Source: Pseudonocardia endophytica
GTDB lineage: Bacteria; Actinomycetota; Actinomycetes; Mycobacteriales; Pseudonocardiaceae
Direction of reading: 5' to 3'
NCBI RefSeq assembly: GCF_004339565.1
Contig: NZ_SMFZ01000002.1
Span: 2,790,001-2,854,000, forward strand
DNA: 64,000 nucleotides
Part shown: positions 5,997 through 33,620 of the stretch, in pieces
How positions within the stretch are numbered: the first letter of the stretch is position 1
Layout of the letters: each line of letters begins with the position of its first letter
The notes under the pieces: model-generated
Databases searched by the model: none
What the model was told of the DNA's origin: nothing
Seen by the model: only the letters and a program-made list of their open reading frames with translations
Made by a program: the position numbers and the translations under genes

Positions 5997-6820
5997 TGGG
6001 ACGGATGGAGGGGAAGGTCGCGCTGGTCACCGGCGCGGCCCGGAACCAGGGGCGCAGCCACGCGCTGCGCCTGGCACGGGAGGGCGCCGACATCATCGCC
6101 GTCGACCTGTGCGGGCCGGTCGACACGATCGAGATGTACGGGCCGTCGTCCGAAGAGGACCTCGCGGAGACCGTCCGTCAGGTCGAGGACCTGGACCGGC
6201 GGATCGTGTCGCACGTCGCCGACGTCCGGGACTCCGCCGCGCTGGGGGCCGCGGTGGATGCCGGCGTGTCCTCCCTGGGCGCGCTGGACGTGGTGTGCGC
6301 CAACGCGGGCGTGTTCGAGATCGCTCCGGCGCTCGAGATCACCGACGCGATGTGGCAGACCATGCTGGACGTCAACCTGACCGGCGTGTGGAACACGTGC
6401 CGGGCGGCGCTGCCGCACCTCGTCGCGAACGGGGGCGGCTCGATCGTGATCACCAGCTCGACCGCCGGGATCAAGGGAACGCCGAACACGGTGCACTACA
6501 CGGCGACCAAGCACGGGATCGTCGGGGTCATGCGGACGCTGGCCAACGAGTTCGCGGAGCAGGGCGTCCGGGTGAACACCGTGCACCCCACCGGAGTGGA
6601 CACCGACATGATCATGAACGAGAAGACATGGGGGCTGTTCTCGCCGGAGAATCCGACGCGCGAGGCCGCCGCGCCGCTCTACGAGTCGTTGCACGCCCTG
6701 CCGATCCCCTGGGTGGAGCCGGTGGACATCTCGAACGCCGTGCTGTGGCTGGCCAGCGACGAGGCCCGCTACGTCACCGGCGTGATGCTGCCGGTCGACG
6801 CGGGATGGACGATCCGATGA
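5996..6820 (+). CDS. Mycofactocin-coupled short-chain dehydrogenase (paralogue 1)
   Basis: A 274-residue SDR. It has the cofactor loop VTGAARNQGRSHA, NAG at about 101, active-site Ser in ITSSTAG and the YTATK catalytic Tyr/Lys pair. An insert of about 35 residues after the second strand (CGPVDTIEMYGPSSEEDL) matches the extended loop known in mycofactocin-dependent SDRs of the carveol-dehydrogenase type, where NAD is bound tightly. It overlaps the aldehyde dehydrogenase (TGATG) and the following paralogue (ATGA). Likely role: oxidation of a secondary alcohol, with electrons passed to mycofactocin. Confidence 0.93.
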   Translation: MGRMEGKVALVTGAARNQGRSHALRLAREGADIIAVDLCGPVDTIEMYGPSSEEDLAETVRQVEDLDRRIVSHVADVRDSAALGAAVDAGVSSLGALDVVCANAGVFEIAPALEITDAMWQTMLDVNLTGVWNTCRAALPHLVANGGGSIVITSSTAGIKGTPNTVHYTATKHGIVGVMRTLANEFAEQGVRVNTVHPTGVDTDMIMNEKTWGLFSPENPTREAAAPLYESLHALPIPWVEPVDISNAVLWLASDEARYVTGVMLPVDAGWTIR

Positions 6821-7668
6821 GCGCGCCGACCGGGACGCACCGCCGCATGGAGGGCAAGGTCGCGCTCGTGACCGGCGCGGCCCGCGGGCAGGGCCGGGCA
6901 CACGCGGTCCGGCTGGCGCAGGAGGGCGCCGACGTGATCGCCGTCGACGCCTGCGCGCCGATCGACACCGTCGACAAGTACCCGCTCCCGACCCGCGAGG
7001 ACCTGGACGAGACGGTCGCGGAGGTGGAGCGTCTCGACCGCCGGATCGTGGCCAGGGTCGCCGACGTCCGTTCCCCGGACGCACTGGCCGCCGCGCTGGA
7101 CGAGGGCGTCACGCAGCTCGGGGGCCTGGACGCCGTCGTCGCGAACGCCGGGATCGCCACCTACGGTGCCGCCACGGACATCACCGAGGACATGTGGCGC
7201 ACGATGCTCGACGTCAACCTGACCGGCGTCTGGCACACGGCCGTCGCGGCGGTGCCGCACCTGCGGGCCCGCGGCGGCGGGTCGATGGTGTTCACCAGCT
7301 CGATCGGCGGGCTGAAGGGGATCATGGGGGTGGCGCACTACGTGTCCGCCAAGCACGGTCTCGTCGGGCTGATGCGCACGATGGCGAACGAGCTGGGCGG
7401 CGACCGGATCCGGGTGAACACCGTGCATCCGACCAACGTGGACACCCACATGATCCAGAACCCGGGTACGTGGGGGATGTTCGCGCCGGGGGACCCGGAG
7501 CCGACGCAGGAGAAGGCGATGGACGGGTTCCGATCGCTGAACGCGATGCCGGTGCCATGGGTCGACCCGGTGGACATCGCGAACGCGGTGCTGTTCCTGT
7601 CCAGCGACGAGGCGCGGTACGTGACCGGGGTGGCGTTGCCGGTCGATGCGGGTGCGGCCGTACGCTAG
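6817..7668 (+). CDS. Mycofactocin-coupled short-chain dehydrogenase (paralogue 2)
   Basis: A 283-residue SDR, colinear with and highly similar to its upstream neighbour: VTGAARGQGRAHA cofactor loop, the same long insert (CAPIDTVDKYPLPTREDL), FTSSIGG active-site Ser and YVSAK Tyr/Lys pair. It has a ten-residue N-terminal extension if started at the ATGA overlap (6817); the internal ATG at 6847 gives the shorter form seen in paralogue 1. The pair looks like a tandem duplication kept for two stereo- or regio-chemically different alcohols, which is an inference. It is the last enzyme before the TetR gene. Confidence 0.93.
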   Translation: MSAPTGTHRRMEGKVALVTGAARGQGRAHAVRLAQEGADVIAVDACAPIDTVDKYPLPTREDLDETVAEVERLDRRIVARVADVRSPDALAAALDEGVTQLGGLDAVVANAGIATYGAATDITEDMWRTMLDVNLTGVWHTAVAAVPHLRARGGGSMVFTSSIGGLKGIMGVAHYVSAKHGLVGLMRTMANELGGDRIRVNTVHPTNVDTHMIQNPGTWGMFAPGDPEPTQEKAMDGFRSLNAMPVPWVDPVDIANAVLFLSSDEARYVTGVALPVDAGAAVR

Positions 7669-7693
7669 TTCCTCTACCAAACAGGAGGTAGGC

Positions 7694-8344
7694 GTGCGAC
7701 AACCAGCAGGCCGCAGCGTGCGGCGCTCCGGAGGGGAGCGCAAGCCCCGCGAGGAGCGCTGGGCCGAGCTGATCGAGGTCGCCACACAGGTCTTCTACGA
7801 GAAGGGCTACGACGGCGCGTCGCTGCAGGACATCGCGGACCGGCTGGGGATGCTCAAGGGCAGCCTCTACTACTACATCCAGTCCAAGGAGGACCTGCTC
7901 TTCGACGTGATCAGCTCCGTCCACCGCGACGGGCTGGCCGTGATCCGGGCCCGTGCGGAGCTGCCGGGCGATCCGCTGCAGCGGCTGGAGAACGTGATCG
8001 TCGGGCACGTCGAGCACACGTGCCGCAACCTCGTCCCGACGGCGGTGTTCCTGCACGAGCTGTCCGCGCTGCCGCCGGACCGCCGGGTCGAGGTGCTCGG
8101 CAACGAGCACGCCTACCAGGGTGTGTTCCGCGGCCTGATCGAGGCCGGCCAGGCCGAGGGGCTCGTCCGCACCGACATCGACCCCCGGCTGGCCGCGCTC
8201 TCCGTGCTGGGGTCGACGAACTGGGTGTACCGCTGGTTCCGGCCCGGCGGCGCGTTCTCCGCCGACCAGATCGCGACGGAACTGGCCGGCATGGCCGTGC
8301 GCGGGATCGCGACGCCGGACGCTCTGGCCGCCCGGGGTGTCTGA
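7694..8344 (+). CDS. TetR-family transcriptional regulator
   Basis: A 216-residue regulator with an N-terminal TetR HTH (from ELIEVATQVFYEKGY to LYYYIQSKEDLL) and a C-terminal ligand-binding domain of the type seen in acyl-CoA and steroid catabolism repressors (FadR/KstR2-like). The GTG at 7694 was chosen over upstream codons because AGGAGG lies at 7683-7688, five bases upstream. It is the distal gene of the dehydrogenase operon, so it probably controls that operon and perhaps the carboxylase/P450 divergon, where a palindrome sharing its TACCAA half-site is present. The target is inferred, not shown. Confidence 0.92.
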   Translation: MRQPAGRSVRRSGGERKPREERWAELIEVATQVFYEKGYDGASLQDIADRLGMLKGSLYYYIQSKEDLLFDVISSVHRDGLAVIRARAELPGDPLQRLENVIVGHVEHTCRNLVPTAVFLHELSALPPDRRVEVLGNEHAYQGVFRGLIEAGQAEGLVRTDIDPRLAALSVLGSTNWVYRWFRPGGAFSADQIATELAGMAVRGIATPDALAARGV

Positions 8345-8359
8345 CCGGTTCGGGTGCTT

Positions 8360-8377
8360 TTCCCGGCTCGTCGGGAA
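8360..8377 (+). terminator. Stem-loop after the TetR gene
   Basis: A perfect 6-bp stem (TTCCCG/CGGGAA) with a 6-base loop begins 15 bases after the TetR stop. A CCCCTTTTT run follows about 25 bases later, not directly at the stem, so it may be a weak or non-canonical terminator. Confidence 0.45.
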
Positions 8378-8475
8378 TCGCTACTCGTGTCGGTAGATTG
8401 CGCCCCTTTTTCACCGGTATGTGCTGGTCAGTGGGCTGCGTTTCACCGCGAATAGGTAAGCGGCCGGCAATTTCG

Positions 8476-8491
8476 GAGTAGGTCGCTACTC
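8476..8491. promoter_or_regulatory. Perfect inverted repeat upstream of the coiled-coil gene
   Basis: GAGTAG-GTCG-CTACTC is a 6-bp perfect inverted repeat in the 224-base gap before the coiled-coil protein. A related but looser copy (CTAC, 8 bases, GTAG) lies about 100 bases upstream. Candidate operator; the protein that would bind is unknown. Confidence 0.35.
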
Positions 8492-8568
8492 ATGGCACCG
8501 GCCTCGTTCCGGAGGACTGTTCGGTGGTAACAGCAACGACACCGGAACCGCATCCCGAGGAGCCCGCC

Positions 8569-9609
8569 ATGAGCGACCTGACCGCCGACCTCCTGAAGCT
8601 GGCCCAGGACGAGGTCAAGCTGGACGGCGACATCGCCGTCCGCGACGCCGACCGACTCACGGTGGCGAACGACGAGAAGACCGTCCACGACGACGAGAAG
8701 GCCGCGGGCACGGCCGCGAAGGACGTCGTCAACGCGGACAGGGCGCTGGCCGAGGCGGCCGCGCGCGTCCAGGCCCAGCAGCAGGTACTGGCCGCCGCGC
8801 AGGCCGCAGGGGACGCCGACGAGATCGCCCTCGCCAAGTCGAAGATGGCCACGGCCGAGCAGGACGCGCACACCGCCGCGCTCTCGTCGGCCCACGCCCA
8901 CAGGACGCTCGACGACGCCGCGGCGAAGCTGAAGACCGACACCGACGCGCTGCACGCCGACCAGGACAAGCTCGCGAAGGACGAGGCGCAGGTCGACAAG
9001 GACGGCCACGACGTCGCCACCGACGAGCACCACGTCAACCACGACCTCGGCCTGCCGGAGGACACCCCGATCGACGGCGCGCCCGAGCTCGACGGGCACG
9101 GCGGCGTCGTCGAGCCCCCGCCCGTCGTCGTCACCGGTCCGATCATCGACGACTGGCCCACGCCGCACGGCCCGCACGACCCGATCGTCGTGCACGAGAC
9201 CGTGCACCCCGAGGGTGACCCGCTCGACCCGGCCCCGGCCGGTGGCGACCCGGCTCCGACGACGACCGGCGGGGACCACACCCCCACGACGTTCCCGGTG
9301 CTCGCGCACGACCCGGACCCCGGCTACACGCAGCCCGCCCACGACATCGACCCGGGCTACTCGCCGGACCACGAGGTGTTCTCGCACGTGAAGGACCTCC
9401 CCGGCGACGCGCACGACGTGGACAGCTCGACGAGCACGTCCGAGCCGACGACCACGCACGAGCCGTCCACGCACGAGACGCACGAGACGGCCGCTCCGGT
9501 CGAGCACGAGAACGCGCCGGTGTCCCACGAGGGCTCCGGGCACGCCGCGGCGACGGACCACGACACGTCCGACGCCGGGCACGCCGACGTGGCCGCGCTG
9601 CACCACTGA
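8569..9609 (+). CDS. Hypothetical protein: alpha-helical coiled coil with His/Asp/Pro-rich disordered tail
   Basis: 346 residues, no recognised domain. Residues about 1-165 are Ala/Asp/Lys-rich with heptad spacing and no Pro or Gly breaks, predicting a long coiled coil. Residues about 175-346 are Pro/Thr/Asp-rich and strikingly His-rich, with repeats such as HETHET and DPGY, ending in His-His. There is no signal peptide or membrane segment. ATG at 8569 was chosen because GAGGAG lies six bases upstream; an in-frame GTG at 8524 also has GGAGG upstream. It is flanked by hairpins on both sides and stands alone. Metal binding by the tail is possible but unproven. Confidence 0.75.
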   Translation: MSDLTADLLKLAQDEVKLDGDIAVRDADRLTVANDEKTVHDDEKAAGTAAKDVVNADRALAEAAARVQAQQQVLAAAQAAGDADEIALAKSKMATAEQDAHTAALSSAHAHRTLDDAAAKLKTDTDALHADQDKLAKDEAQVDKDGHDVATDEHHVNHDLGLPEDTPIDGAPELDGHGGVVEPPPVVVTGPIIDDWPTPHGPHDPIVVHETVHPEGDPLDPAPAGGDPAPTTTGGDHTPTTFPVLAHDPDPGYTQPAHDIDPGYSPDHEVFSHVKDLPGDAHDVDSSTSTSEPTTTHEPSTHETHETAAPVEHENAPVSHEGSGHAAATDHDTSDAGHADVAALHH

Positions 9610-23136: not shown

Positions 23137-24294
23137 TCAGTGGCGGAACGGACCGTCCGGCCCGAACGCGAACGCGGCGAACCGCGCGCCGATCCGCTCG
23201 TGCGTCGCCGCGTCCGGGTGCAGGTTGTCGGGCAGCGGCAGCTCCGCGGCGTCCGCGTCGCCGTACAGCTCACGGCCGTCCAGGTAGTGCAGGTTCGGGT
23301 CGTCGCGGACCGCGACGACCCGGTCGAGCTCCTCGCGGACGACGGACAGCGTCAGCCTGCCGGCCGCGATCTCGGCCGGATCCCCGGTCGCGCGGAACCT
23401 CAGCGTGCCGGCGGCGAGGGAGTCCGTGTCGACCGCACCGGGCCCCGGCGTGTCCTCGTGGATCGGGCACAGGACCGGAGAGACGAGCAGCAGAGGTGTC
23501 GTCGGATGCCCGTCGCGGACCGTGTCCAGGAAGCCGTGCACGGCGGAACCGAACGCGCGTCGTCGCATCACGTCGCCGTTCACGACGTTGATGCCGAGCT
23601 TGACGCTGATCAGGTCGGCCGCGGTGTCGCGCATCGCGCGCGCCGTGAACGGGTCGACCATGGCGCTGCCGGAGAACCCCAGGTTGATCAGGTCGACGTC
23701 GGAGGAGCGGGCGGCGAGCGCGGGCCACGTCGTCGCCGGGCTCGCCGCGTTCGACCCCGCCGAGATCGAGCTGCCGTGGTGCAGCCACACCCGTCGCTCC
23801 GCGGGCGCCGGCGTGACGTCCGCGTCCGCCCTGAGCGCGACGAGCTGGGTGATCTCGTTGTGCGGCAACCAGATCTCGACGGCCTTCTCGGCGTCGGGCA
23901 GGCCGTCGAACCGCACGGTCCCGACCGGGCCCTGCTCGGTCTCGGTGGCGCCGGTGGCCGGGTCGGTCCAGAGCACGAGCCCGCCGGACGTGCTCGCCGT
24001 GGCGGCGGGCTCGCCGTCGACGACGAGGTCGTAGACCCCGTCCGGACGCAGCGGCGCGCCGCGCAGGCCGATCCGCGTGCGGAGCGTGTCCAGCTCGACG
24101 GTCGTCGCACGCGTCCGGAACACCAGCCGCACCCCGGACGGCTGCGACTCCGCCAGCGCGAGCTGGGCGTCGGCGCACTGCGCGCGGGCACGGGCGGGCA
24201 GGCGGTGCGGGAGCAGGCCGTGCTCGGTGCGCACCAGTTCCAGCGCGCCGCGCACGAGGTCGGGGGTGATCGTCCGGGGGAGCGGGCCGGTCAT
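23137..24294 (-). CDS. SGNH/GDSL-type hydrolase with N-terminal beta-sandwich
   Basis: 385 residues. The first 150 or so are beta-rich (RLVFRTRATTVELDT and later strands), resembling the jelly-roll placed before SGNH domains in carbohydrate esterases. The catalytic part starts at HHGSSISAG (nucleophile Ser), continues with LGFSGSAM (block II Gly) and KLGINVVNG (block III Asn), and ends with DNLHPDAATH (Asp/His pair). There is no signal peptide, so it is probably cytoplasmic. Substrate unknown; esterase or acetylesterase activity is the family expectation. It stands alone, convergent with the MetE-like gene. Confidence 0.87.
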   Translation of the reverse strand: MTGPLPRTITPDLVRGALELVRTEHGLLPHRLPARARAQCADAQLALAESQPSGVRLVFRTRATTVELDTLRTRIGLRGAPLRPDGVYDLVVDGEPAATASTSGGLVLWTDPATGATETEQGPVGTVRFDGLPDAEKAVEIWLPHNEITQLVALRADADVTPAPAERRVWLHHGSSISAGSNAASPATTWPALAARSSDVDLINLGFSGSAMVDPFTARAMRDTAADLISVKLGINVVNGDVMRRRAFGSAVHGFLDTVRDGHPTTPLLLVSPVLCPIHEDTPGPGAVDTDSLAAGTLRFRATGDPAEIAAGRLTLSVVREELDRVVAVRDDPNLHYLDGRELYGDADAAELPLPDNLHPDAATHERIGARFAAFAFGPDGPFRH

Positions 24295-24342: not shown

Positions 24343-24468
24343 TCAGAGCTCGCCGGCGAGCAGCGCCTCGTCGCTGATCCGGCAGGGGGCGTCCTCGTCG
24401 GCCTCCGGTGCGGATTCACCGCGCAGGCGCAGGCGTGCCTCGTCCAGCGACACCACGTCCGCACCCAT
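24343..24468 (-). CDS. Small hypothetical protein (41 aa) divergent from the SMC operon
   Basis: A 41-residue acidic protein beginning MGADVVSLDEARLRLRG and ending SDEALLAGEL. The ATG is preceded by GGGAGGTG with ideal six-base spacing, which supports real translation. It is divergent from the MukF-like gene with only 85 bases between, and that gap contains a GTAAC direct repeat (11-base spacing), so the two may be co-regulated. No family recognised; an amphipathic helix (SLDEARLRLRG) is predicted. Its role in the SMC system is speculation. Confidence 0.6.
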   Translation of the reverse strand: MGADVVSLDEARLRLRGESAPEADEDAPCRISDEALLAGEL

Positions 24469-24540
24469 GCGCACCTCCCGTGTTACGGCCAGGTTACCGA
24501 CCCGGTGCGGGTGGGAGAAGGGCGGCGTGATCGGTCTCCG

Positions 24541-24546
24541 TAGACT
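24541..24546 (+). promoter_or_regulatory. -10 box TAGACT for a leaderless SMC-operon transcript
   Basis: TAGACT fits the actinobacterial TANNNT -10 box. Seven bases separate it from the GTG start at 24554, and there is no Shine-Dalgarno, so the mRNA probably starts at the start codon. Confidence 0.55.
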
Positions 24547-24553
24547 GCCGCGG

Positions 24554-26002
24554 GTGTCCGAGACCGCCAGCGGAACGCGTGCCGGGGACGAGGGGGTGGC
24601 CCGTCGTCTCAAGGCGTTGGCCTGCACCGCGCCGCTGCACGACCTGGACGCCCGCAAGGGGCTCCTGGACTGGGCGGACGCGTCGCGCTACCAGATGGCC
24701 GAGATCGGGTTGCAGGCGATCGACCAGGTCACGCTCGCCATGGACTTCGACCACGGCGCGGACGCCGACCAGGTCGTGCGTCGCCTGCAGCCGTTCATCG
24801 CCGCACAGGCGCCGGGCTCGCCCACGGCCGAGCACGAGCACGTCGGGCACTGGGTGATCGAGAACCTGATCAACGTCGGCAGCCTGGACCGGGGGTTCGC
24901 CGTCGAGTACGGGGCCGTCGACGCCGGCGGGCGCTACGTGCGCCGACGGTTCGACTTCAAGCTGCTCGTCGAGGTCGCGGCGCCGGACGGCCAGGTCTAC
25001 CTGCGGGCGTCCGACGAGGCGATCAACGTGCTCGTCGGGGCGCTGGACACCGACGTCGAGTCCGCCCAGGTCGCGGCCGAGGTGAAGCTGGAGAACCTGA
25101 TCAGCCGCGGACGGCTCGGCGACGCGCGCCTGGCGGCCGAGCAGGCCCGCTACCGCACCGTGCAGTACGCGGAGGCGTTGCGCGCCAAGCTGGAGTCCAC
25201 CCGTCGCGACGTCCGGTCCGTCGACTGGTTGGAGTCGGTCCCGGCGCTGCTGGACGACGCGCTCACCCACATCGAGGGCCGCTACCGGGCCGAGACGGCG
25301 ATCCTGTCGAACATCGCCGACGCCCGCGACGACGCGACCGAGCCGGACCGCCGCAGGCAGGCCGCGGAGCTGGTCGGCGTCGTCGAGGACTGCATCGGCA
25401 GGCACACCCAGCTGCAGGCGCGGCTGCAGGAGGCGGGTGCCGCGTTCCGCGCCGAGCAGGACCGCCAGCAGTTCGCCGGGCGCCCGCAGCGCGCCGCGAT
25501 CGACGTGTTCGGCCAGCTCCTGCGCCCGTCGCTCGGTCTGCCGGTCGGCATGGCCGGGTTCCCGGCCGTCGCGTTCTTCTCCGCGGGCGCCGGGATCAGG
25601 GTGCCGAGCGTGCCCGGCCTCGGCGGCCTCGTCGAGACCCTCCTGACGCCGCCCCCGGAGCGCGACCCGCTCGGCCAGGAGATGCCGGAGCCGGACCTGT
25701 CGCCGTCGGAACCGGAACGTTTCGGCGACCAGCGCTGGGGCGCCGCGGACGCCGTGCTGCCGTCGGACGCGGGCGGGGTGCGGCTGTCGTCGTTGCTGGC
25801 GCGGGCCAGGGAGTCCGATGTGGAGCTGCCGGCGCTCGTCGCGCTGCGGGCGCTGAACGCGGTCGGGACGGCCATCGGCACGGCGCGCAACCAGGGCGAC
25901 GAGCGCGTGCTCGTCGCCGTCGACGACGGCACCGTCCTGCGCGACGACGAGTTCGCCGGCTCCGACCTGCTCGTCGCACTCGCCGGGGTGGAGACGGCGT
26001 GA
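24554..26002 (+). CDS. MukF/MksF/JetA-like kleisin-type subunit of an SMC operon
   Basis: 482 residues. The N-terminal third is a globular, probably winged-helix region. Then comes RRFDFKLLVEV with a segment YLRASDEAINVLVGALDTD, followed by a long helical section (about 170-305) rich in Ala, Arg and Glu. The C-terminal part has a hydrophobic segment (GMAGFPAVAFFSAGAGI) and an acidic linker. Size, position and architecture match the F/A subunit of MukBEF/MksBEF/Wadjet systems, which bridges SMC heads. The GTG start was chosen for its leaderless -10 box and because longer starts run into the divergent promoter. Its stop overlaps the next gene (GTGA). The assignment rests on operon logic, not a decisive motif. 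Confidence 0.65.
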   Translation: MSETASGTRAGDEGVARRLKALACTAPLHDLDARKGLLDWADASRYQMAEIGLQAIDQVTLAMDFDHGADADQVVRRLQPFIAAQAPGSPTAEHEHVGHWVIENLINVGSLDRGFAVEYGAVDAGGRYVRRRFDFKLLVEVAAPDGQVYLRASDEAINVLVGALDTDVESAQVAAEVKLENLISRGRLGDARLAAEQARYRTVQYAEALRAKLESTRRDVRSVDWLESVPALLDDALTHIEGRYRAETAILSNIADARDDATEPDRRRQAAELVGVVEDCIGRHTQLQARLQEAGAAFRAEQDRQQFAGRPQRAAIDVFGQLLRPSLGLPVGMAGFPAVAFFSAGAGIRVPSVPGLGGLVETLLTPPPERDPLGQEMPEPDLSPSEPERFGDQRWGAADAVLPSDAGGVRLSSLLARARESDVELPALVALRALNAVGTAIGTARNQGDERVLVAVDDGTVLRDDEFAGSDLLVALAGVETA

Positions 26003-26775
26003 GGGGCGTCGACGTCGAGTCCGCGGCGCGCCTCGTCGCGTTCGGCATGCGCCCCAAGGCACTGCCCGGGCGGGACGAGGCGTACGCGGAGCTGGTGCGC
26101 CGCTACCGCGAGGACGACGAGTTCGCGGACACCGTCCAGCGCGTGGCGTCCGGGCTCGGGCTGGTGGTGCTGGCCGTCGACAAGTCGCCGGGGATCGTGC
26201 TGGCGGCCGTCGAGGAGTCCGTCTTCGAGATCAAGATGGACGAGTACGCGCGCCGCACGGCGCTCGCGAACCGGCAGGCCGACCGCGTCCTGCACGGCCT
26301 CGCGCACCTGGCGGCGGCCGCGCTCGCGTTCCCGCGCCCTGACGACCTCGGCAACGACAGCTACGTCGGGCGGGTCTCCGTGGACCAGGTCGACGGCGCC
26401 GTGCGGGAGGCGTCGCGGGTGCTCTCCGAGCGGGTGGCAGGCACCGAGGAGTCCGATCCGGAGTCCGATGCGCCGCAGCTGGAGGCCGTCTGGCGGGTGT
26501 GGCTGCGCCGCCCGGAGGCGACCGCGACGAAGGACGGCCGTGCGGGGGAGTCGACGACCCGCGGCATCGTCGGGAAGGCACTGCGGTTCCTCGCCGACCA
26601 GGGCTTCCTGCACCCGGTCGGCACCGAGGGCGCGTACCGGACGACCGCCCGCTACCAGGTCCAGGTGCGCGAGCTGGCCGCCCAGCGCGCGTTCGACGAG
26701 CTGCTCGAACTCGGTGTGCTCCCGGCCGGGACGCCCGAGGGCACGTTGCGCAAGGAGCCCGCCTCGGATGTATGA
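25999..26775 (+). CDS. MukE/MksE/JetB-like winged-helix subunit of an SMC operon
   Basis: 258 residues, mixed alpha/beta. A central helical region is followed by a polar linker (GTEESDPESD). The C-terminal winged-helix-like segment runs from TTRGIVGKALRFLADQGFLHPVG to a strand pair TTARYQVQVRELAAQRAF. The E/B subunits of MukBEF/Wadjet are proteins of this size with winged-helix domains that bind the kleisin. GTG overlaps the upstream stop by four bases, and its own end overlaps the SMC start by eight, so all three subunits are translationally coupled. Assignment is by size, order and fold prediction. Confidence 0.65.
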   Translation: MRGVDVESAARLVAFGMRPKALPGRDEAYAELVRRYREDDEFADTVQRVASGLGLVVLAVDKSPGIVLAAVEESVFEIKMDEYARRTALANRQADRVLHGLAHLAAAALAFPRPDDLGNDSYVGRVSVDQVDGAVREASRVLSERVAGTEESDPESDAPQLEAVWRVWLRRPEATATKDGRAGESTTRGIVGKALRFLADQGFLHPVGTEGAYRTTARYQVQVRELAAQRAFDELLELGVLPAGTPEGTLRKEPASDV

Positions 26776-29700
26776 GCTCTCCCGCGTGCGCCTGTTCTCG
26801 GTGGGACCGGCGGGCGCCCGGTACCAGGACGTCACGCTCGACCTGCGCGGTGTCGGCGAGCCGGTCACGGTCGCGCACCAGGAGGACCTGTTCGCCGCCG
26901 ACGACCCGTTCGAGGGCGCCGCCCGCGTTCCGCGACGGCCCGCGCCCGCGTCGGTGCTGTTCCTGGAGAACGGCGGCGGCAAGTCCGTCCTGCTGAAGCT
27001 GATCTTCTCGGTGCTGTTGCCCGGCCGCCGTCAGGTCGTCGGCACCACGAGCACGAGCGTGCTGGAGAAGTTCGTGCTGGCCGAGGACGTCGCGCACGTC
27101 GCGTGCGAGTGGATGCACACCGGCACCGGACGGCTGCTGGTCACCGGCAAGGTGTCCGAGTGGCGGGGGCACGTCGCGTCGTCGGACCCGGAGAAGCTCG
27201 CCGACGCGTGGTACTCGCTGCGCCCGCACACGGGGTTCGGGCTGGACGAGCTGCCGTTCACGGTGGACAAACGGCGGGTGACGGCGACGGCGTTCCGCGA
27301 GCGGCTGCACGAGGCCGACCGGGAGAACCCGGAGTGCGAGCTGACCTGGGAGACCGGCCAGCGCGACTGGACCCGCCACCTCGTCGACACCGGTCTCGAC
27401 CCGGAGCTGTTCCGCTACCAGCGCACGATGAACGCCGGCGAGGGCGAGGCGGCGGAGGCGTTCTCGTTCCCGTCCGACGAGGCGTTCGTCGACTTCCTGC
27501 TGCGCGCCGTGCTCGACCCGGAGGAACCGCAGAACCTGGCCGACCTCGTCGCCGGCTACGCGACGAAGCTCGCCCAGCGCGAGGAGCTCGAGACCGAGCG
27601 GGAGTTCGTCGACGGCACGCTCGAGCGGCTGGGCCCGCTGGTGGAGGCCGAGGCGCTCGCCGGGTCCGCGCGCACCAGGGAGCAGGCGGCCCGCGACGCG
27701 GCGCGCTCGCTAGCCGGCGCGATCGTCGCCCGTCGGGCCGCGGAGGACGAGCGGGTCGCGGGCGCCGTGGCGACGCTCTCCGACACCGAGGACACCGAGA
27801 AGGAGGCCGTCCGGGCGGAGAAGCGTCTCCAGGAGACGGTCGCGGAGCTGCGACGGCTGACGGCGGCCCTCGAGGTCGATGCGGCGACCCGGGCGGAGGC
27901 GGACGCGACCCGCGAGCGCGACGACGCACGCTCCACGGTGGAGGCCTGGGCGGCCGTCGAGCCGGTGCTCCGGTACCGGGTCGCGGCCGGGGAGGCGGCC
28001 CGGCTGCGCACCCGCGTCGACTCGGAGCAGGAGAAGGCGCGTCCGGCGCTGCACGCCCGCACCGACGCCGCCCGCGCGCTCGGAGCGGCGTTGCGCGCCA
28101 CGGCATCCGAGGCCGACGCCGCCGCCGAGGCGGCGGGCGCGGAGCAGGAGGCTGCGGACCGTCGGGCCGCGGCGGCACGCGCGGTCGAGGTGGAGCGCTC
28201 CTCCGAGGCCGCCATCGCCGAGCAGGCCGGCGAGCGGGCGCGCGCCGACCTCGCCGCGATCGACGACGCGGTGAGCGCCGCAGAGCGGGACGGCCGTCTG
28301 GAGCCGGGCGCCGACGTCGCGACGGCCGCGGACGAGGTGCGGGAGCGAGCCCGGCAGGCCACGCGGGCCGTCGACGAGCTGCACGCCGAGTCCGAACGGC
28401 TGCGGCGCGAGCGGCGCGGTGCCGAGGAGCGCCGGTCCGACGCGCGGTCGGCCGCCGAGGCCGCCCGGTCGGCGGTCGAGGTGTCCGCGACGGCCTACGA
28501 CGACGCCGTCGCCGCCCGGGACGCGCTCGCCTCCGAACCGCGCGCTGCCGAGCTGCTCAGCGTGGACGCCGTCCGCCCGGACACCGACGCCGACCTGCTC
28601 GTCGAACGGCTCACGGCCGCGGTCGGGACCCACGAGCGGGAGCGCACCACGCTGTCCGGTGAGCAGCAGCGCGACGAGCGGGCGCTGCAGGCGCTCGGGT
28701 CCGGCGGCCTGCTGCCGGAGCCGCCCGAGGTCGAGGCGGCGCTCGGCGTCCTGGAGGCGGCCGGGATCACCGCGTGGTCCGGCTGGCGTTACCTGACGAT
28801 GCTGCCCGCAGGCTCGCGGGAGGAGGTGCTGGCGCGGCTGCCCCATCTCGTCGACGGCGTGCTGCTCAACAACCGCGACGACCTCACCCGGGCCGGCGAG
28901 GAACTGACGGCGGCGCGGCTGCTGCCGTCGTGCCTGGTGGCGGTCGGGACGACGGCCGCGATGCACGGGACGGACACCGCACCCGGCGTCGAGCTCGTCG
29001 TCCCCCCGAACCCGGCCCTGTACGACGAGGACGCCGCCGCAGAGGTCCGGGAGACGCTCACCGCGGAGACGGCGGCGCGGGCGTCGCGGATCGACGAGCT
29101 GGCCGCCGCCGTCGACGCCGACCGGGAGCTGCGGACCCGTTTCGCCGCGTGGCGGGAGCGCCGCCCGACGGTCGACGAGCTCGCGGACGCGCTGCAGGAA
29201 CGGCGCGACGCGCTGACCGCGGCCGAACGCGCCGTCGCGGAGGCCGCGGCGGCGGTCGAGGCGCTCGACGATCGGGCGGACGCGCTGGAGGCGGACCGGC
29301 CCGAGCTGCAACGGGCCGCGCTGGCCGCCCGCGAGCGGGCCGAGGCGCTGGAGGCGTTGCGCACCAGGGTCTCCGGCCGCGAGGAGCTCGTCGAACGGCA
29401 GCGCGCGGCGACGGCGGACGCGGCCCGCGCGATCCAGGCGGCGGCGAGCGCACGGTCCGACGCGGAGACGGCGGCGGCGTCCGCAGTGGACGCCCGGCGT
29501 ACCCGCGACCGGCAGGAGTCGACGGCCGTCCGCGCCCGTGAGGACCTGGCGGCCCTGCCGCTGTCCGAATCGGACACCCTCCCGGAGCCGCCGGACAGCC
29601 CGCTGTCCGTGCTGCGGGAGGAGTTCCGGCGCGCCGACTCCGCCTACGCCACCGCGGAGGTCGACGCGGACCTGCGGGGCCGCCTGGAGTCCGCCGAGCA

Positions 29701-31210
29701 GGCGGTCGTCGCGGCGAAGCAGCCCCTCGACGCCCTCGCGGCCGGCGTGCTGGACGCCGCGGAGGCGTTGCTGCGCACGCCGGACGGCTCCGACTCCGGG
29801 TCCCGGCGCGCGGCGTCGGACCAGGCCCGGGCCGCCCTGAACGCCGCCGACGACCGGCTCCGCAGGGCGTCCGGCGCGCTCGCCGTCGCCGAGCGGGAGC
29901 TGGCGTCCTATCCGGACCGACCGCGCCCGATCGACGGCTACGACCGCCCGCGCGACGCCGCCCACGGCCGCGAGCTCGTCGAACAGGCGGACGGTGACCG
30001 TCGGGCGGCCGAGGATGCGGCCGTGTCGGCGCGGCGAGCGGCACAGGCGGCCCGGGACACGCACGGGTCGGCGGTGCGGTCCGCGGAGGGATTCGGGCAC
30101 GTCGTCGCCGGTATGGACGACGCGCCGGACGCGACCGGTGCGGCCCCGTTCGACGGCGACGTCGACGCCGCGCTGGAGGCGACGAAGCAGCGGCAGTCGG
30201 CCGTGCGTGCGGCGGCGGCGGAGCGGCACGGCGCCGAGAAGGACGTGCGCGAGGCCGTCGACTCCGTCGCCCAGTTCGCGCAGGACGCACGGTTCTCGTC
30301 GCTGTCCGGCCCGGTGCGCAAGCACATCTCCGGAGTCGCCCGTGCGGACATGCCGGGGCTCGCGCCGGAGTGGATCGCGGCGCTGCGCCCGCGGCTGCGC
30401 TCCCTCGACGACGACCTCGCCCACATCGAACGGCACCGCTCCGGCATCGTCACGCGGCTGACCGGCATGGTCGGGGAGGCGGTGCGCACGCTGCGGCTGG
30501 CCGAGCGCCTGTCCGAGCTGCCCGACGGGCTCGGCGACTGGTCCGGGCAGCGGTTCCTGCGGATCCGGTTCGAGGCCGTCGAGGACGCGGTGCTCCGGCA
30601 CGAGCTGGGGGACGTCGTGGACCGGGCGGCGTCGTCGGTGAACGCCCCGAAGGCGTCCCGCGAACTGCGCGACGGGATGTCCCTGCTGCTGCGCGGTGTG
30701 CGTGCCGCGATGCCGAAGGGCGTGCGCATCGAGATGCTCAAGCCGGACGCCGTGCTGCGCACCGAGCGGCTGCGGGTCTCCGAGATCCGCGACGTGTTCT
30801 CCGGCGGTCAGCAGCTCACCGCGGCGATCGTCCTGTACTGCACGATGGCCGCGCTGCGGGCCCACCAGCGGGGACAGGGTCGTCGCCCGCACGCCGGCGT
30901 GCTGTTCCTGGACAACCCGATCGGCCGCGCGTCCGCCGGGTACCTGCTGGAACTGCAGTTCGGCGTGGCCAGGGCGCTGGGGGTGCAGCTCGTCTACACG
31001 ACCGGCCTGTTCGACGCCGGCGCGCTCGCGACGTTCCCGCTGATCATCCGCCTGCGCAACGACGCCGACCTGCGCGCGGGGCGCAAGTACCTGTCCGTCG
31101 ACGACCGGGTCGCGACCGTGCTGGGGGAGCCGCCGGAGACCGACGGCACGGGCTCGGTCACGGCGACGCGTCTCTACCGCCGACCCGAACCGGCCGTCGA
31201 GTCAGGATGA
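26768..31210 (+). CDS. SMC-like ATPase (MukB/MksB/JetC-type), head-coiled coil-hinge-coiled coil-head
   Basis: 1480 residues. The N-terminal head has a P-loop at 66-73 (LENGGGKS, Lys72). Long Ala/Glu/Arg-rich coiled coils run from about 270 to 640 and 770 to 1230, separated by a globular hinge-like insert at about 655-765 (WSGWRYLTMLPAGS onward). The C-terminal head has the ABC signature SGGQ at 1345-1348 and a Walker B strand VLFLDNP with Asp1382. Two positions are unusual: Leu replaces the first Gly/Ala of the P-loop consensus, and Asn1383 stands where SMC and ABC ATPases have the catalytic Glu. The start ATG lies inside the upstream gene's last codons. Expected role: DNA loop extrusion, segregation or defence; which one is unknown. 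Confidence 0.82.
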   Translation: MYELSRVRLFSVGPAGARYQDVTLDLRGVGEPVTVAHQEDLFAADDPFEGAARVPRRPAPASVLFLENGGGKSVLLKLIFSVLLPGRRQVVGTTSTSVLEKFVLAEDVAHVACEWMHTGTGRLLVTGKVSEWRGHVASSDPEKLADAWYSLRPHTGFGLDELPFTVDKRRVTATAFRERLHEADRENPECELTWETGQRDWTRHLVDTGLDPELFRYQRTMNAGEGEAAEAFSFPSDEAFVDFLLRAVLDPEEPQNLADLVAGYATKLAQREELETEREFVDGTLERLGPLVEAEALAGSARTREQAARDAARSLAGAIVARRAAEDERVAGAVATLSDTEDTEKEAVRAEKRLQETVAELRRLTAALEVDAATRAEADATRERDDARSTVEAWAAVEPVLRYRVAAGEAARLRTRVDSEQEKARPALHARTDAARALGAALRATASEADAAAEAAGAEQEAADRRAAAARAVEVERSSEAAIAEQAGERARADLAAIDDAVSAAERDGRLEPGADVATAADEVRERARQATRAVDELHAESERLRRERRGAEERRSDARSAAEAARSAVEVSATAYDDAVAARDALASEPRAAELLSVDAVRPDTDADLLVERLTAAVGTHERERTTLSGEQQRDERALQALGSGGLLPEPPEVEAALGVLEAAGITAWSGWRYLTMLPAGSREEVLARLPHLVDGVLLNNRDDLTRAGEELTAARLLPSCLVAVGTTAAMHGTDTAPGVELVVPPNPALYDEDAAAEVRETLTAETAARASRIDELAAAVDADRELRTRFAAWRERRPTVDELADALQERRDALTAAERAVAEAAAAVEALDDRADALEADRPELQRAALAARERAEALEALRTRVSGREELVERQRAATADAARAIQAAASARSDAETAAASAVDARRTRDRQESTAVRAREDLAALPLSESDTLPEPPDSPLSVLREEFRRADSAYATAEVDADLRGRLESAEQAVVAAKQPLDALAAGVLDAAEALLRTPDGSDSGSRRAASDQARAALNAADDRLRRASGALAVAERELASYPDRPRPIDGYDRPRDAAHGRELVEQADGDRRAAEDAAVSARRAAQAARDTHGSAVRSAEGFGHVVAGMDDAPDATGAAPFDGDVDAALEATKQRQSAVRAAAAERHGAEKDVREAVDSVAQFAQDARFSSLSGPVRKHISGVARADMPGLAPEWIAALRPRLRSLDDDLAHIERHRSGIVTRLTGMVGEAVRTLRLAERLSELPDGLGDWSGQRFLRIRFEAVEDAVLRHELGDVVDRAASSVNAPKASRELRDGMSLLLRGVRAAMPKGVRIEMLKPDAVLRTERLRVSEIRDVFSGGQQLTAAIVLYCTMAALRAHQRGQGRRPHAGVLFLDNPIGRASAGYLLELQFGVARALGVQLVYTTGLFDAGALATFPLIIRLRNDADLRAGRKYLSVDDRVATVLGEPPETDGTGSVTATRLYRRPEPAVESG

Positions 31211-31225
31211 CCCCGGGTGCGGCCG

Positions 31226-31244
31226 GACCGGGCCCCGCCCGGTC
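31226..31244. terminator. Hairpin after the SMC operon
   Basis: A perfect 7-bp stem (GACCGGG/CCCGGTC) with a 5-base loop lies 16 bases after the SMC stop and overlaps the stop of the convergent response-regulator fragment. Confidence 0.6.
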
Positions 31245-31533
31245 AGATCTCGGCCAGGCGGAAGCCGACGCCGCGGACGGTGACCACCCAGTCCGACGAG
31301 CCCAGCTTGCGCCGGAGGCTGTTCACGTGGGTGTCGATCGTCCTGCTGCGGGTCAGGTCGTCGTCGTCCCAGACCTGCCGCAGGATCTGCCGCCGCCCGA
31401 CCACGTCGCCCGGATGGCAGGCCAGCAGCGTCAACAGCTCGAACTCCTTGCGGGTCAGCGGGACCGGGCGGTCGTGCACCCGCACGGTGTGCGTCACGCC
31501 GTCGATCGTGGTCCGGTCCGGCTCCGGGGCGGC
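31243..31533 (-). pseudogene. Response-regulator remnant: OmpR-type DNA-binding domain only
   Basis: The frame encodes a complete trans_reg_C winged helix: LTRKEFELLTLLACHPGDVV, then the recognition helix in TIDTHVNSLRRKLG and the wing VRGVGFRLAEI. The receiver domain is missing; in this frame a stop codon lies at the point where an epimerase fragment begins in another frame. A GTG at 31497 could still give an 84-residue DNA-binding protein, so some function cannot be excluded. It abuts the hairpin that ends the SMC operon, at the place where a fourth SMC-system gene would be expected. Confidence 0.7.
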
Positions 31534-31624
31534 TCATCGCCCGCACGTCCGTCCCGGCCCCGACCAGCTCGTCGACGACCCTGCGGCCCACGACACCGCG
31601 AGCCCCGGTCACCAGGGCGGTCAC
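31520..31624 (-). pseudogene. NAD(P)-binding epimerase/NmrA-type N-terminal remnant
   Basis: A GTG at 31624, overlapping the exporter stop (GTGA), opens a frame beginning MTALVTGARGVVGRRVVDEL, a textbook NmrA/SDR-a Rossmann start with GxxGxxG. Homology ends after about 33 residues (RAMSRP), where the DNA continues as the response-regulator domain in another frame. The two partial genes are joined at about 31530, which indicates an internal deletion. Confidence 0.7.
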
Positions 31625-33336
31625 CGCGCGGTCCCGTCGGACGAACCGTCGGACGACGCCGCGGCAGGCACGTCGTCCCGGCCGAACGCGTCCGTGTCCC
31701 CGTCCTCCGTGTCCCCGTCTCCCGTGTCCCGGTCGTCCGGGCCGGAGGTGTCGTGCCCGCCCGGCGTCCCGGGCTCGCGCAGGACGAACGCGACGGCGAC
31801 GGCGACGGCCAGCGACACGACCAGGGTGATCGTCGCGGCGGCGTGCAGCCCGCCGGCGAACGCCTCACGAGCCGCTCGGAACAGCTCGGTGCCGAGCGGG
31901 CCGGGTAGCGTCCCGGCGACCGAGGCGGCACCGCCGAGCGTGTCCGATGCCGTCCGGACGGCATCGGCCGGGATCCCGGCCGGCATCGCGTCGGTCAGCT
32001 GCGAGCGGTAGACGATCGCTCCGATCGTCCCGAACGCGGCCAGCCCGAGCGCATTGCCGAACTGCTGGCTGGTCTCGGACATCGCGGACGCGGCGCCCGA
32101 CCGTTCCGGTGGCGCGGAGCCGACCATCGCCGCGACGCCGAGCGTGGTCGACGGGCCGAGGCCGAGGAACACGAACACGAAACCGACGATCAGTCCCGGC
32201 AGCCCTCCGTCGACCGGGACCGTGCTCAGCACGGCGAAGCCGACGGCGGCCACGACCAGACCGCCCGCCATGACGTAGGCCTGCTGGACCCGGGCCGCGA
32301 TCGTCGGGGTGAGCGACACACCGACGAACCCGGCGACAAGCAGCGGCAGCGACCACATCGCCGACGCGAACGTCGACTGGCCCTCGACCAGCTGCAGGAA
32401 CTGCATCCCGAAGTAGCCGGTGCCCGCCATCAGCAACGAGCCCAGCAGCAGTACGCCCATCGCGACGACGAACCGGCGACCGGCCAGCAGCTCGAGGTCG
32501 AGCATCGGGTCCTCCAGCCTCCGCTGGCGCACCAGGAACGCGATCCCGACCGCGACCCCGAGCACGACCGCCGCGAGCGCGGCCAGGTCGAAGCCGTCCT
32601 CAGCGGAGCGCTGCACCCCGTAGATCACCCCGAGCACCGCGACGAGCGACAGCACCGCGCTGACCGGGTCGATCCGGCCCGGCCGCCTCTCGCGGTACTC
32701 GGGCACCAGCCGTGGGCCGGCGACCAGCAGCAGCACCATGACCGGCACGCCGATCAGGAACACCGAGCCCCACCAGAACCACTCCAGCAGCAGGCCGCCC
32801 ACCAGCGGGCCCGCGGCGTTGCCGGCCAGGTTGCCCATCATCCAGACCGACGCCGCACGGGTGCGCTGGCCCTCGTCGGCGAACATGTTGCGGATCAGGG
32901 ACAGCGTCGACGGCGCGACCGTCGCCCCGGCGACGCCGAGCAGCCCGCGGGCGAGGATCAGCATGCCCGCCGTCGGCGCCCACGCCGCGAGGACCGAGGC
33001 GAGCGCGAACGCGACGGCGCCGACCAGCAGCAGCCTGCGGCGCCCGATCCGGTCGCCGAGCTTGCCCATGACGATCAGCAGACCGGCGATGACGAAGCCG
33101 TAGATGTCGATGATCCAGAGCAGCTGGGAGCTGCTGGGCGCGAGATCCTCGCTGATCGTCGGCACCGCCAGGTGCAGGACGGTGAGGTCCATGCCGACGA
33201 TCATCGCGGGAAGGACCAGGACGACCAGCCCGAGCCACTCGCGCCGCCCGGCGCGGGCGGACACGGCTCCTCCCGACGCTGCGGATGACGGGCCCGTCGA
33301 GGACGCGCCGCGGGATTCCTCACTCATGGCACTCAT
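31621..33336 (-). CDS. DHA2-family MFS drug exporter (EmrB/QacA type), paralogue 1
   Basis: A 14-helix major facilitator of about 571 residues. Motif A is GKLGDRIGRRRLL, and the DHA2 motif in helix 1 is MDLTVLHLAVPTI. The last helix is followed by a long acidic, Asp/Gly/Thr-rich cytoplasmic tail. Expected to export drugs or cationic/aromatic compounds by proton antiport at the inner membrane. ATG at 33336 has GGGGAG close upstream; a second ATG nine bases later is possible. It is clearly paralogous to the exporter at 37349. The gene downstream is broken (epimerase remnant). No dedicated regulator is adjacent, unlike the paralogue. Confidence 0.93.
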   Translation of the reverse strand: MSAMSEESRGASSTGPSSAASGGAVSARAGRREWLGLVVLVLPAMIVGMDLTVLHLAVPTISEDLAPSSSQLLWIIDIYGFVIAGLLIVMGKLGDRIGRRRLLLVGAVAFALASVLAAWAPTAGMLILARGLLGVAGATVAPSTLSLIRNMFADEGQRTRAASVWMMGNLAGNAAGPLVGGLLLEWFWWGSVFLIGVPVMVLLLVAGPRLVPEYRERRPGRIDPVSAVLSLVAVLGVIYGVQRSAEDGFDLAALAAVVLGVAVGIAFLVRQRRLEDPMLDLELLAGRRFVVAMGVLLLGSLLMAGTGYFGMQFLQLVEGQSTFASAMWSLPLLVAGFVGVSLTPTIAARVQQAYVMAGGLVVAAVGFAVLSTVPVDGGLPGLIVGFVFVFLGLGPSTTLGVAAMVGSAPPERSGAASAMSETSQQFGNALGLAAFGTIGAIVYRSQLTDAMPAGIPADAVRTASDTLGGAASVAGTLPGPLGTELFRAAREAFAGGLHAAATITLVVSLAVAVAVAFVLREPGTPGGHDTSGPDDRDTGDGDTEDGDTDAFGRDDVPAAASSDGSSDGTAR

Positions 33337-33620
33337 GACTCCCCGACGATCGGCCCCGGTGGTGGCCGGCCGCATCCGTCACGTGACGGTAGCCGGCCGC
33401 CCGCTCGTCCGGGCATCACACACCGTTGGACAAGATTTGCAGGTCCGGCTCTCCGGCGTGGTTGACGCGGTTCTCCGGCCGGTTTCAGAATCGATGACGC
33501 GGGAATGATCGGCGCGCCTCGCCGCCGTCCCGTCGTGAATGCGGACCGGCAGACTCCCTCGGCGCCGCCGGAACACCCCGCAGCGCCGTTCCGAATGGAT
33601 TCCGTCCCGCGGAGGACTCG

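What the first reader, a model, noticed from the sequence alone, without database searches (positions are those of the whole stretch)
24343..31210. JetABC/MksFEB-like SMC operon without a JetD/MksG nuclease and with unusual ATPase motifs
Three coupled genes (482, 258 and 1480 residues) have the order and sizes of the kleisin, winged-helix and SMC subunits of MukBEF/MksBEF/Wadjet complexes. The SMC protein has head, two coiled coils, a hinge-like insert and an SGGQ signature. Known Wadjet systems carry a fourth nuclease gene (JetD), absent here. The N-terminal lengths and hinge do not obviously match the TIGR02680 SMC of type II/III loci. This may be a D-less actinobacterial lineage with a segregation or plasmid-control role.
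Basis: partly seen in the sequence, partly recalled or inferred. Interest (0 to 1): 0.78.

Follow-up and report, generated by a model that had tools for sequence, protein, structure and literature searches.

The report
Wadjet-type SMC complex lacking its nuclease
The three genes encode a DNA-looping machine of the kind bacteria use to destroy plasmids, but its DNA-cutting part is missing, and nuclease-free versions are kept as well-conserved resident genes in several actinobacterial groups, which suggests that a defence machine has been turned into a chromosome-handling one.

Summary
jetA, jetB and jetC (482, 258, 1480 aa) overlap at 24554-31210 and are type III Wadjet core subunits: PADLOC JetA3 1e-195, JetC3 E=0, JetB3 weak; predicted folds fit MukF and JetB/MukE. 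No jetD follows and none was detected in the genome. Walker B LDNP (Asn for the usual Glu) and Walker A ENGGGKS are family traits, also in JetD-bearing copies. In a 66-locus tree (14 with JetD, 52 without) the window is nested among JetD-bearing relatives, so its jetD was most simply lost. It has 0 private changes at 451 near-invariant columns: not decaying. JetD-less JetABC is widespread: 27 of 31 JetC-bearing genomes of the family sample, 19 such loci near whiA and/or gap, and a Streptomyces-like genus where 193 of 199 genomes have JetA3 but 14 of 199 any JetD, 13 of these with an extra JetA. All five plasmid JetC relatives carry JetD. Best reading: a defence complex that lost its nuclease and is kept as a resident, MksBEF-like loop extruder; the chromosome role is inferred. 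JetD loss is known in principle (MksBEF, MukBEF); this type III, core-genome form is a new variant.

The parts
24554..26002 (+). jetA (kleisin, MukF-like), 482 aa, GTG start
   Evidence: PADLOC JetA3 PDLC00567 1.2e-195; low-confidence model (pTM 0.37) whose VIA rows 1-8 come from MukBEF/MukEF/MukF entries
25999..26775 (+). jetB (KITE, JetB/MukE-like), 258 aa, overlaps jetA by 4 nt
   Evidence: PADLOC JetB3 4.9e-4; model whose Foldseek rows 1-15 all come from JetABC, MukBEF, MukEF or MukE entries, none with E under 0.001
26768..31210 (+). jetC (SMC ATPase), 1480 aa, overlaps jetB by 8 nt
   Evidence: PADLOC JetC3 PDLC00588 E=0, 1743 bits
26966..26986 (+). Walker A ENGGGKS in jetC
   Evidence: same in all 64 of 66 aligned JetC rows that cover it, with and without JetD
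30797..30814 (+). ABC signature FSGGQQ in jetC
30899..30934 (+). Walker B VLFLDNPIGRAS in jetC, Asn in the place of the usual catalytic Glu
   Evidence: LDNP in all 65 of 66 aligned rows that cover it and in the 7 copies read apart
31211..31243 (.). place where jetD follows jetC in relatives; here 33 nt to the next coding remnant

Best explanation
This is the JetABC core of a type III Wadjet system that has lost its JetD nuclease but is kept as a working complex. SHOWN by sequence: the three subunits, the missing jetD, the nesting among JetD-bearing relatives, retained ATPase motifs, strong conservation, and many more JetD-less loci that go with their host genera. INFERRED: that the change was loss and not gain; and that two JetC arms, bridged by JetA and clamped by JetB, still load on DNA and use ATP to extrude loops. 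Without JetD, completing a loop on a small circle no longer ends in cleavage, so the complex can act on the host chromosome (and perhaps hold plasmids) as a second, MksBEF-like condensin next to the genome's ordinary SMC. In other words, a plasmid-defence machine was converted to a resident DNA organiser, more than once, in actinobacteria.
For: Type III identity and folds. JetD not found nearby or in the genome. 66-locus JetABC tree: 14 with and 52 without JetD, at least 8 changes of state on starred branches, window nested among JetD-bearing relatives. JetDs of the window's genus form one clade with L188 outermost, as in the JetABC tree. L191 has the flanking genes of its JetD-bearing relatives but no JetD. 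Window: 0 private changes in 451 near-invariant columns. Twelve close JetD-less pairs have dN/dS 0.03-0.19. All-or-none presence in 32 of 33 multi-sampled genera of the family. 20 of 28 family loci outside the window's genus have whiA and/or gap in the stretch, 19 without and one with JetD (Pfam check on one locus). JetA3 in 193 of 199 genomes of genus g71, JetD in 14 of 199. All 5 plasmid records with a JetC relative at E up to 1e-20 have a JetD beside it. A canonical SMC lies elsewhere in the genome. PMC10586767 (passages) states that P. [quoted passage not shown]
Against: No experiment or expression data. Asn in the catalytic-Glu slot could mean slow or altered ATP hydrolysis; it occurs in JetD-bearing copies too, so it does not decide. 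Counts of changes cannot tell gain from loss, and the JetD and JetABC trees agree only in part (L062 and L119 are sisters for JetD, not for JetABC). A JetD too divergent for the searches, or another nuclease acting in trans, is not excluded. In the window's genus the state flips often (9 loci with, 10 without, among window-type JetC) and JetC is present in only 41 of 62 genomes, so a long resident role is less secure for the window than for the family and g71 loci. The window's flanks differ from its nearest relatives'. JetD-bearing pairs show similar constraint on JetA (dN/dS 0.04-0.20) and JetC (0.13-0.26), so constraint alone does not mark the JetD-less state.
Confidence: 0.6

Rival explanations
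1. JetABC still defends against plasmids without its own nuclease: it extrudes and holds or silences small circles (as Smc5/6 does for viral DNA), or it recruits an unrelated host nuclease in trans.
For: The ancestral role is anti-plasmid (PMC10586767 and PMC10123090, passages); JetB's N-terminal region looks alike in copies with and without JetD (by eye).
Against: No gene family other than JetABC recurs beside the loci of all three host families in the stretches fetched; all-or-none presence per genus and purifying selection look like housekeeping; all five plasmid copies carry JetD.
Confidence: 0.22
2. In the window itself JetABC is a leftover on its way out after a recent JetD loss.
For: The window is nested in a JetD-bearing clade and gene debris lies right behind jetC; its dN/dS with L188 and L190 is higher (JetC 0.48 and 0.50) than in the other pairs.
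Against: Three intact overlapping ORFs and 0 private changes at 451 near-invariant columns, against 3 for L188, a JetD-bearing relative with an equally long branch. The high ratios come from more distant pairs, where this method is unreliable at high GC.
Confidence: 0.1
3. A complete Wadjet system whose JetD is encoded elsewhere or is too divergent to see.
For: JetD evolves faster than the core (dN/dS 0.25-0.54 in five pairs); PF09983 finds some true JetDs of this type only weakly.
Against: A family-specific JetD profile finds all 18 known neighbours (13 of them in its own training set, 5 not) and nothing better than E 1.2 in 52 JetD-less loci (L137 has only 91 nt downstream); nothing in G000.
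Confidence: 0.07

Closest known systems
Wadjet type III (JetABCD III)
   Same: JetA3, JetB3 and JetC3 subunits; nearest relatives in the genus have a JetD directly behind jetC, and the two JetDs tested by PADLOC are JetD3
   Different: jetD is absent here and in most chromosomal loci surveyed
P. aeruginosa MksBEF and E. coli MukBEF
   Same: SMC, kleisin and KITE without the MksG/JetD nuclease; described as nuclease-lacking members of the Wadjet group with chromosome roles (PMC10586767, PMC7617805, passages)
   Different: Type III rather than MukB or type I sequence families (no MukB, MukE or MukF Pfam hit); function untested
MksBEFG/EptABCD of Corynebacterium and Mycobacterium
   Same: Actinobacterial JetABC-type core
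   Different: Those have the nuclease and act on plasmids (PMC10123090, PMC10586767, passages); C. glutamicum is the one of 14 control genomes that rings for PF09983
Canonical SMC-ScpAB
   Same: SMC-kleisin-KITE logic (PMC10512200, passages)
   Different: A different family; the genome has its own SMC at G000:C1:1424843-1428490 and P0003 has no SMC_prok_B hit

Membership tests
Wadjet type III | JetA3 kleisin | tested here: met
   PDLC00567 1.2e-195; MukF-like model, low pTM
Wadjet type III | JetB3 KITE | tested here: met
   weak HMM 4.9e-4; fold: Foldseek 8dk1_E E 1.6e-3, prob 1.00; VIA 8as8_C Z 8.2, rmsd 5.2, 176 aligned, with an unrelated winged-helix protein at Z 7.0 over 97
Wadjet type III | JetC3 SMC ATPase with Walker A and ABC signature | tested here: met
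   PDLC00588 E=0; motifs
Wadjet type III | JetD TOPRIM nuclease in the operon | tested here: not met
Wadjet type III | restricts small circular plasmids | not testable with these tools
   needs transformation assays
MksBEF/MukBEF-like condensin (nuclease-free Wadjet group) | SMC, kleisin and KITE in one operon without MksG/JetD | tested here: met
MksBEF/MukBEF-like condensin (nuclease-free Wadjet group) | sequence match to the MukB, MukE or MukF families | tested here: not met
   no MukB, MukE or MukF hit in Pfam at E up to 1; PADLOC JetC1 model only E 0.05
MksBEF/MukBEF-like condensin (nuclease-free Wadjet group) | role in chromosome organisation | not testable with these tools
   inferred from conservation only
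Canonical SMC-ScpAB | SMC_prok_B (TIGR02168) match | tested here: not met
   no NCBIfam hit for P0003 at E up to 1; the genome's SMC lies elsewhere

The most novel reading that the evidence does not exclude
A plasmid-defence SMC complex was converted, several times independently, into a resident second condensin by dropping its nuclease. One such complex is a near-universal core component of a large Streptomyces-like genus (193 of 199 genomes), and at least two genomes hold a resident JetD-less copy together with a divergent JetD-bearing copy (G211, G095).
Probability: 0.48. Interest if true: 0.82.

Novelty: new variant of a known kind. Interest (0 to 1): 0.6.

Why it matters
A review suggests that MukBEF and MksBEF may have a history as defence systems (PMC10586767, passages), a transition that is hard to watch in those lineages. 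Here the JetD-less state ranges from whole genera at fixed sites to single loci nested among JetD-bearing relatives (L191, the window), so the step from defence to resident SMC becomes directly testable with close pairs. If the Streptomyces-like genus is Streptomyces, accounts of its chromosome folding may leave out a condensin-like complex: the two Streptomyces SMC papers in which I searched for MukB and Mks returned no passage on one in Streptomyces.

Tried and rejected
PF09983 as the sole JetD test was dropped as too weak: it scores some true JetDs of this type only at 4e-4 to 1e-6. A family-specific model (A1, A4) replaced it. Proteins 23137-24294(-) (GDSL esterase) and 31621-33375(-) (MFS-like by eye) were rejected as fourth subunits: they lie on the other strand and do not recur as immediate neighbours in the genus (an MFS-like family, f16, recurs downstream in L178 only). 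'Odd ATPase motifs mark the JetD-less state' was rejected. A fourth gene shared by JetD-less loci was sought and not found: apart from JetABC, neighbour families are confined to one host family, except f21, seen in L051 and in f20 loci (simple home-made gene caller). Sequence searches of PDB with JetA and JetC gave nothing; JetB gave two chains, PaxB at 0.01 and a hypothetical protein at 0.9; JetD matched 7til JetD at 2.6e-3 and 8b7f MksG at 0.02.

Results against or limiting. The window's genus mixes states: 9 with JetD and 10 without among window-type JetC; JetD in 18 of 62 genomes, JetC in 41 of 62. The ten 'all present' genera include g1 (3 of 3 sampled, contradicted by the fuller survey) and g18, whose copies carry JetD. 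L137 is counted as JetD-less although its contig ends 91 nt after jetC. Agreement: the genus clade with L188 outermost, L074+L133 (JetABC side from JetA alone), and L073 and L120 branching next to each other. Disagreement: L062+L119, and L177 inside the genus clade. I lowered two odds slightly for this. The tree left out L074, L075, L076, L133, L140 (too divergent), L068 (copy of L002), and L063, L072, L078 (same loci as L190, L191, window); it kept both L001 and L187, which are one locus. It cut L073's frameshifted JetC at residue 1303 and used partial JetC for L129 and L134. It ran in quick mode with LG+G4 and warned of long branches meeting at L119 and L139. The simple motif search did not find the Walker A pattern in L133 nor SGGQ in L140 and L075. 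Four of 185 g71 genomes without JetD also have two JetA matches. Polaromonas gave a weak sixth plasmid match to a different query and is not counted. NG86 dN/dS is rough at high GC. Motif names and the usual Glu of Walker B are recalled.

Full report
What is there. Three overlapping genes at 24554-31210 encode 482, 258 and 1480 residues. PADLOC names them JetA3 (1.2e-195), JetB3 (4.9e-4) and JetC3 (E=0, 1743 bits). Pfam and NCBIfam give no match above their cut-offs; the nearest is DUF6063, below cut-off, for JetB. AlphaFold models from 30-31 natural homologues support the subunit types. JetB (pLDDT 77.6) has as its first fifteen Foldseek rows only chains of JetABC, MukBEF, MukEF or MukE entries, best 8dk1_E at E 1.6e-3, none under 0.001; VIA gives Z 8.2 to 8as8_C (rmsd 5.2, 176 aligned), with an unrelated winged-helix protein at Z 7.0 over 97 residues. 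JetA (pLDDT 72.3, pTM only 0.37) has MukBEF, MukEF or MukF entries as VIA rows 1-8, Z 13-14, rmsd 9-10 and 21.6 in one row, not far above CorA rows at 12.8; the fold match is suggestive and the PADLOC match carries the claim.

No nuclease. Nine loci of the same genus have, directly behind jetC, a protein of about 325-348 aa. Of the JetDs, the one from L190 (same genus) and the one from L120 were put to PADLOC and are JetD3 (7.9e-101 and 1e-104). E198, D253 and D255, taken as the TOPRIM acids, are invariant, and the JetD profile matches the solved JetD 7til weakly (E 2.6e-3). A profile of 13 JetDs scores E 2.7e-50 or better in 18 of 18 loci that have one; 13 of these are its own training rows, 5 are not. 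In up to 6 kb behind jetC of 52 loci without JetD, window included, its best value is E 1.2. In the genome G000 neither PF09983 nor the JetD alignment finds one. The genome has a canonical SMC elsewhere.

ATPase motifs. Walker A is ENGGGKS, the signature FSGGQ and Walker B LFLDNPIG, with Asn where ABC ATPases usually have the catalytic Glu. In the 66-row alignment Walker A and LDNP are the same in every row that covers them, with or without JetD; LDNP is also present in seven copies read apart, five of them divergent ones outside that alignment, where a simple search missed Walker A in one and SGGQ in two. So this is a trait of the type, not of the JetD-less state. A comparable Glu-to-Gln change is described for LmuB of Lamassu (PMC10586767, passage).

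How the window came to lack JetD. In a tree of joined JetA, JetB and JetC (66 rows, 14 with JetD, 52 without) the window lies inside a clade of its genus that otherwise holds nine JetD-bearing rows and one JetD-less row; at least eight changes of state are forced by starred branches. Such counts cannot tell gain from loss, and the next rows outward in the genus are JetD-less. For loss speak: the JetDs of the genus form one supported clade with L188 outermost, as in the JetABC tree, and locus L191 (G082), which has the same genes on both sides as L174, L175, L177, L189 and L190 but no jetD. The JetD and JetABC trees otherwise agree only in part: L073 and L120 are close in both, L074 and L133 are sisters in the JetD and JetA trees, but L062 and L119 are sisters only for JetD. 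The window's own flanks differ from those of its relatives, so this copy has a different setting; behind jetC lies the DNA-binding end of a response regulator whose upstream part is stop-ridden (named by eye).

Not decay. At 144, 63 and 244 near-invariant columns of JetA, JetB and JetC the window has no private change, against 3 for L188, a JetD-bearing relative with an equally long branch. Twelve pairs of close JetD-less loci have dN/dS of 0.04-0.18 (JetA), 0.03-0.15 (JetB) and 0.08-0.19 (JetC). Three JetD-bearing pairs have 0.04-0.20, 0.20-0.27 and 0.13-0.26, and JetD itself 0.25-0.54 in five pairs. The two window pairs have higher ratios (JetC 0.48 and 0.50) but are more diverged.

A wide pattern. 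In the family sample of 100 genomes (G000 included) 31 have JetC3. Four have only JetD-bearing copies (G018, G050, G056, G093); 27 have a JetD-less copy, one of them (G095) beside a second, JetD-bearing one. Of 33 genera sampled more than once, 10 have JetC3 in all genomes (g1 and the JetD-bearing g18 among them), 22 in none and one is mixed; shuffling gives 18.8 mixed on average and never one or fewer in 20,000 (G000 not counted). Of 28 family loci outside the window's genus, 20 have whiA (13) and/or gap (15) in the fetched stretch, pgk in 13 and tpi in 10; 19 of the 20 are JetD-less and the other, L062, carries JetD at the same site (Pfam check of these neighbours in L052). In the class sample 63 of 394 genomes have JetC3, most of them in genus g71 or family f20. 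In g71, JetA3 occurs in 193 of 199 genomes (192 of 194 good ones), JetD in 14 of 199. Of these 14, 13 have two or more JetA matches; of the other 185, four do. In five whose coordinates I compared (G211, G555, G631, G634, G678) JetD starts about 7 kb from one JetA; in four of them I could see the other copy elsewhere. Of 11 g71 JetD-less loci looked at, 9 lie before a sensor, Robl_LC7 and DUF742 gene set and 9 behind a GntR gene, all 11 having at least one of the two. In 28 g71 genomes that I picked by hand from the listed single-contig rows, the copy lies a median 16% of the chromosome from the nearer end, 3 of 28 in the outer tenth (most lengths rounded).

Mobile copies differ. Five of 72,556 plasmid records hold a JetC relative at E up to 1e-20, all under 50% identical to the window's, and all five have a JetD match beside it, in one of them partial (annotated neighbours seen for two). 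No phage record of 50,697 matches at E up to 1e-10. In the tree five JetD-bearing rows have end branches of 0.35-1.55, while JetD-less rows stay at 0.35 or less; part of this may be sparse sampling, and the nine JetD-bearing rows of the window's genus are short (0.24 or less).

Mechanism. Described for Wadjet: JetABC is thought to extrude loops, and completion of a loop on a small circle to activate JetD (PMC10586767, passages). That review also states that P. aeruginosa MksBEF likely arose by loss of JetD and contributes to chromosome organisation. PMC7617805 notes that MukBEF and several other Wadjet-group members lack the nuclease (passages; its Figure S1A and data were not seen, so it may list such operons). 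From this I infer that the JetD-less type III complex still loads and extrudes but no longer cuts, and serves as a resident condensin-like factor. Not shown: expression, ATPase activity, DNA looping and any phenotype.

What is known. A DefenseFinder survey reports Wadjet in 42% of actinobacterial genomes and towards the ends of Streptomyces chromosomes, treated as defence (PMC10482375, abstract and passages). Two Streptomyces condensin papers mention MukB or Mks only for other species in the passages returned (PMC13121528, PMC8410768). My searches for JetD-less type III complexes, or for Mks or Wadjet in Streptomyces, listed no title or abstract that describes this; I opened only the papers named here. 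The library lacks most subscription journals, so absence there is weak evidence.

Verdict. New variant of a known kind; interest 0.6.

Noticed in passing
window 31243-31517 (-): DNA-binding end of an OmpR/PhoB-type response regulator with a stop-ridden upstream part (named by eye), gene debris right behind jetC.
   Followed up: partly
   Followed up: no
L073 (G056) 5001-9453: JetC is frameshifted near residue 1300 while the JetD behind it is intact; sequencing error or a core-first decay.
   Followed up: no
L174, L175, L177 and L191: A family of about 135-170 aa minus-strand proteins (f3) flanks the Jet locus on both sides in the window's genus, a possible trace of how the locus inserted.
   Followed up: no
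L174-L179, L190, L191: JetB of this clade often carries a C-terminal extension of odd composition, about 160 aa in L174; absent in the window and short in most other loci.
   Followed up: no
G211 (L132 and L133), G095 (L057 and L074): Two genomes hold a resident JetD-less JetABC and a divergent JetD-bearing JetABC together, a natural pair for comparing roles.
   Followed up: partly
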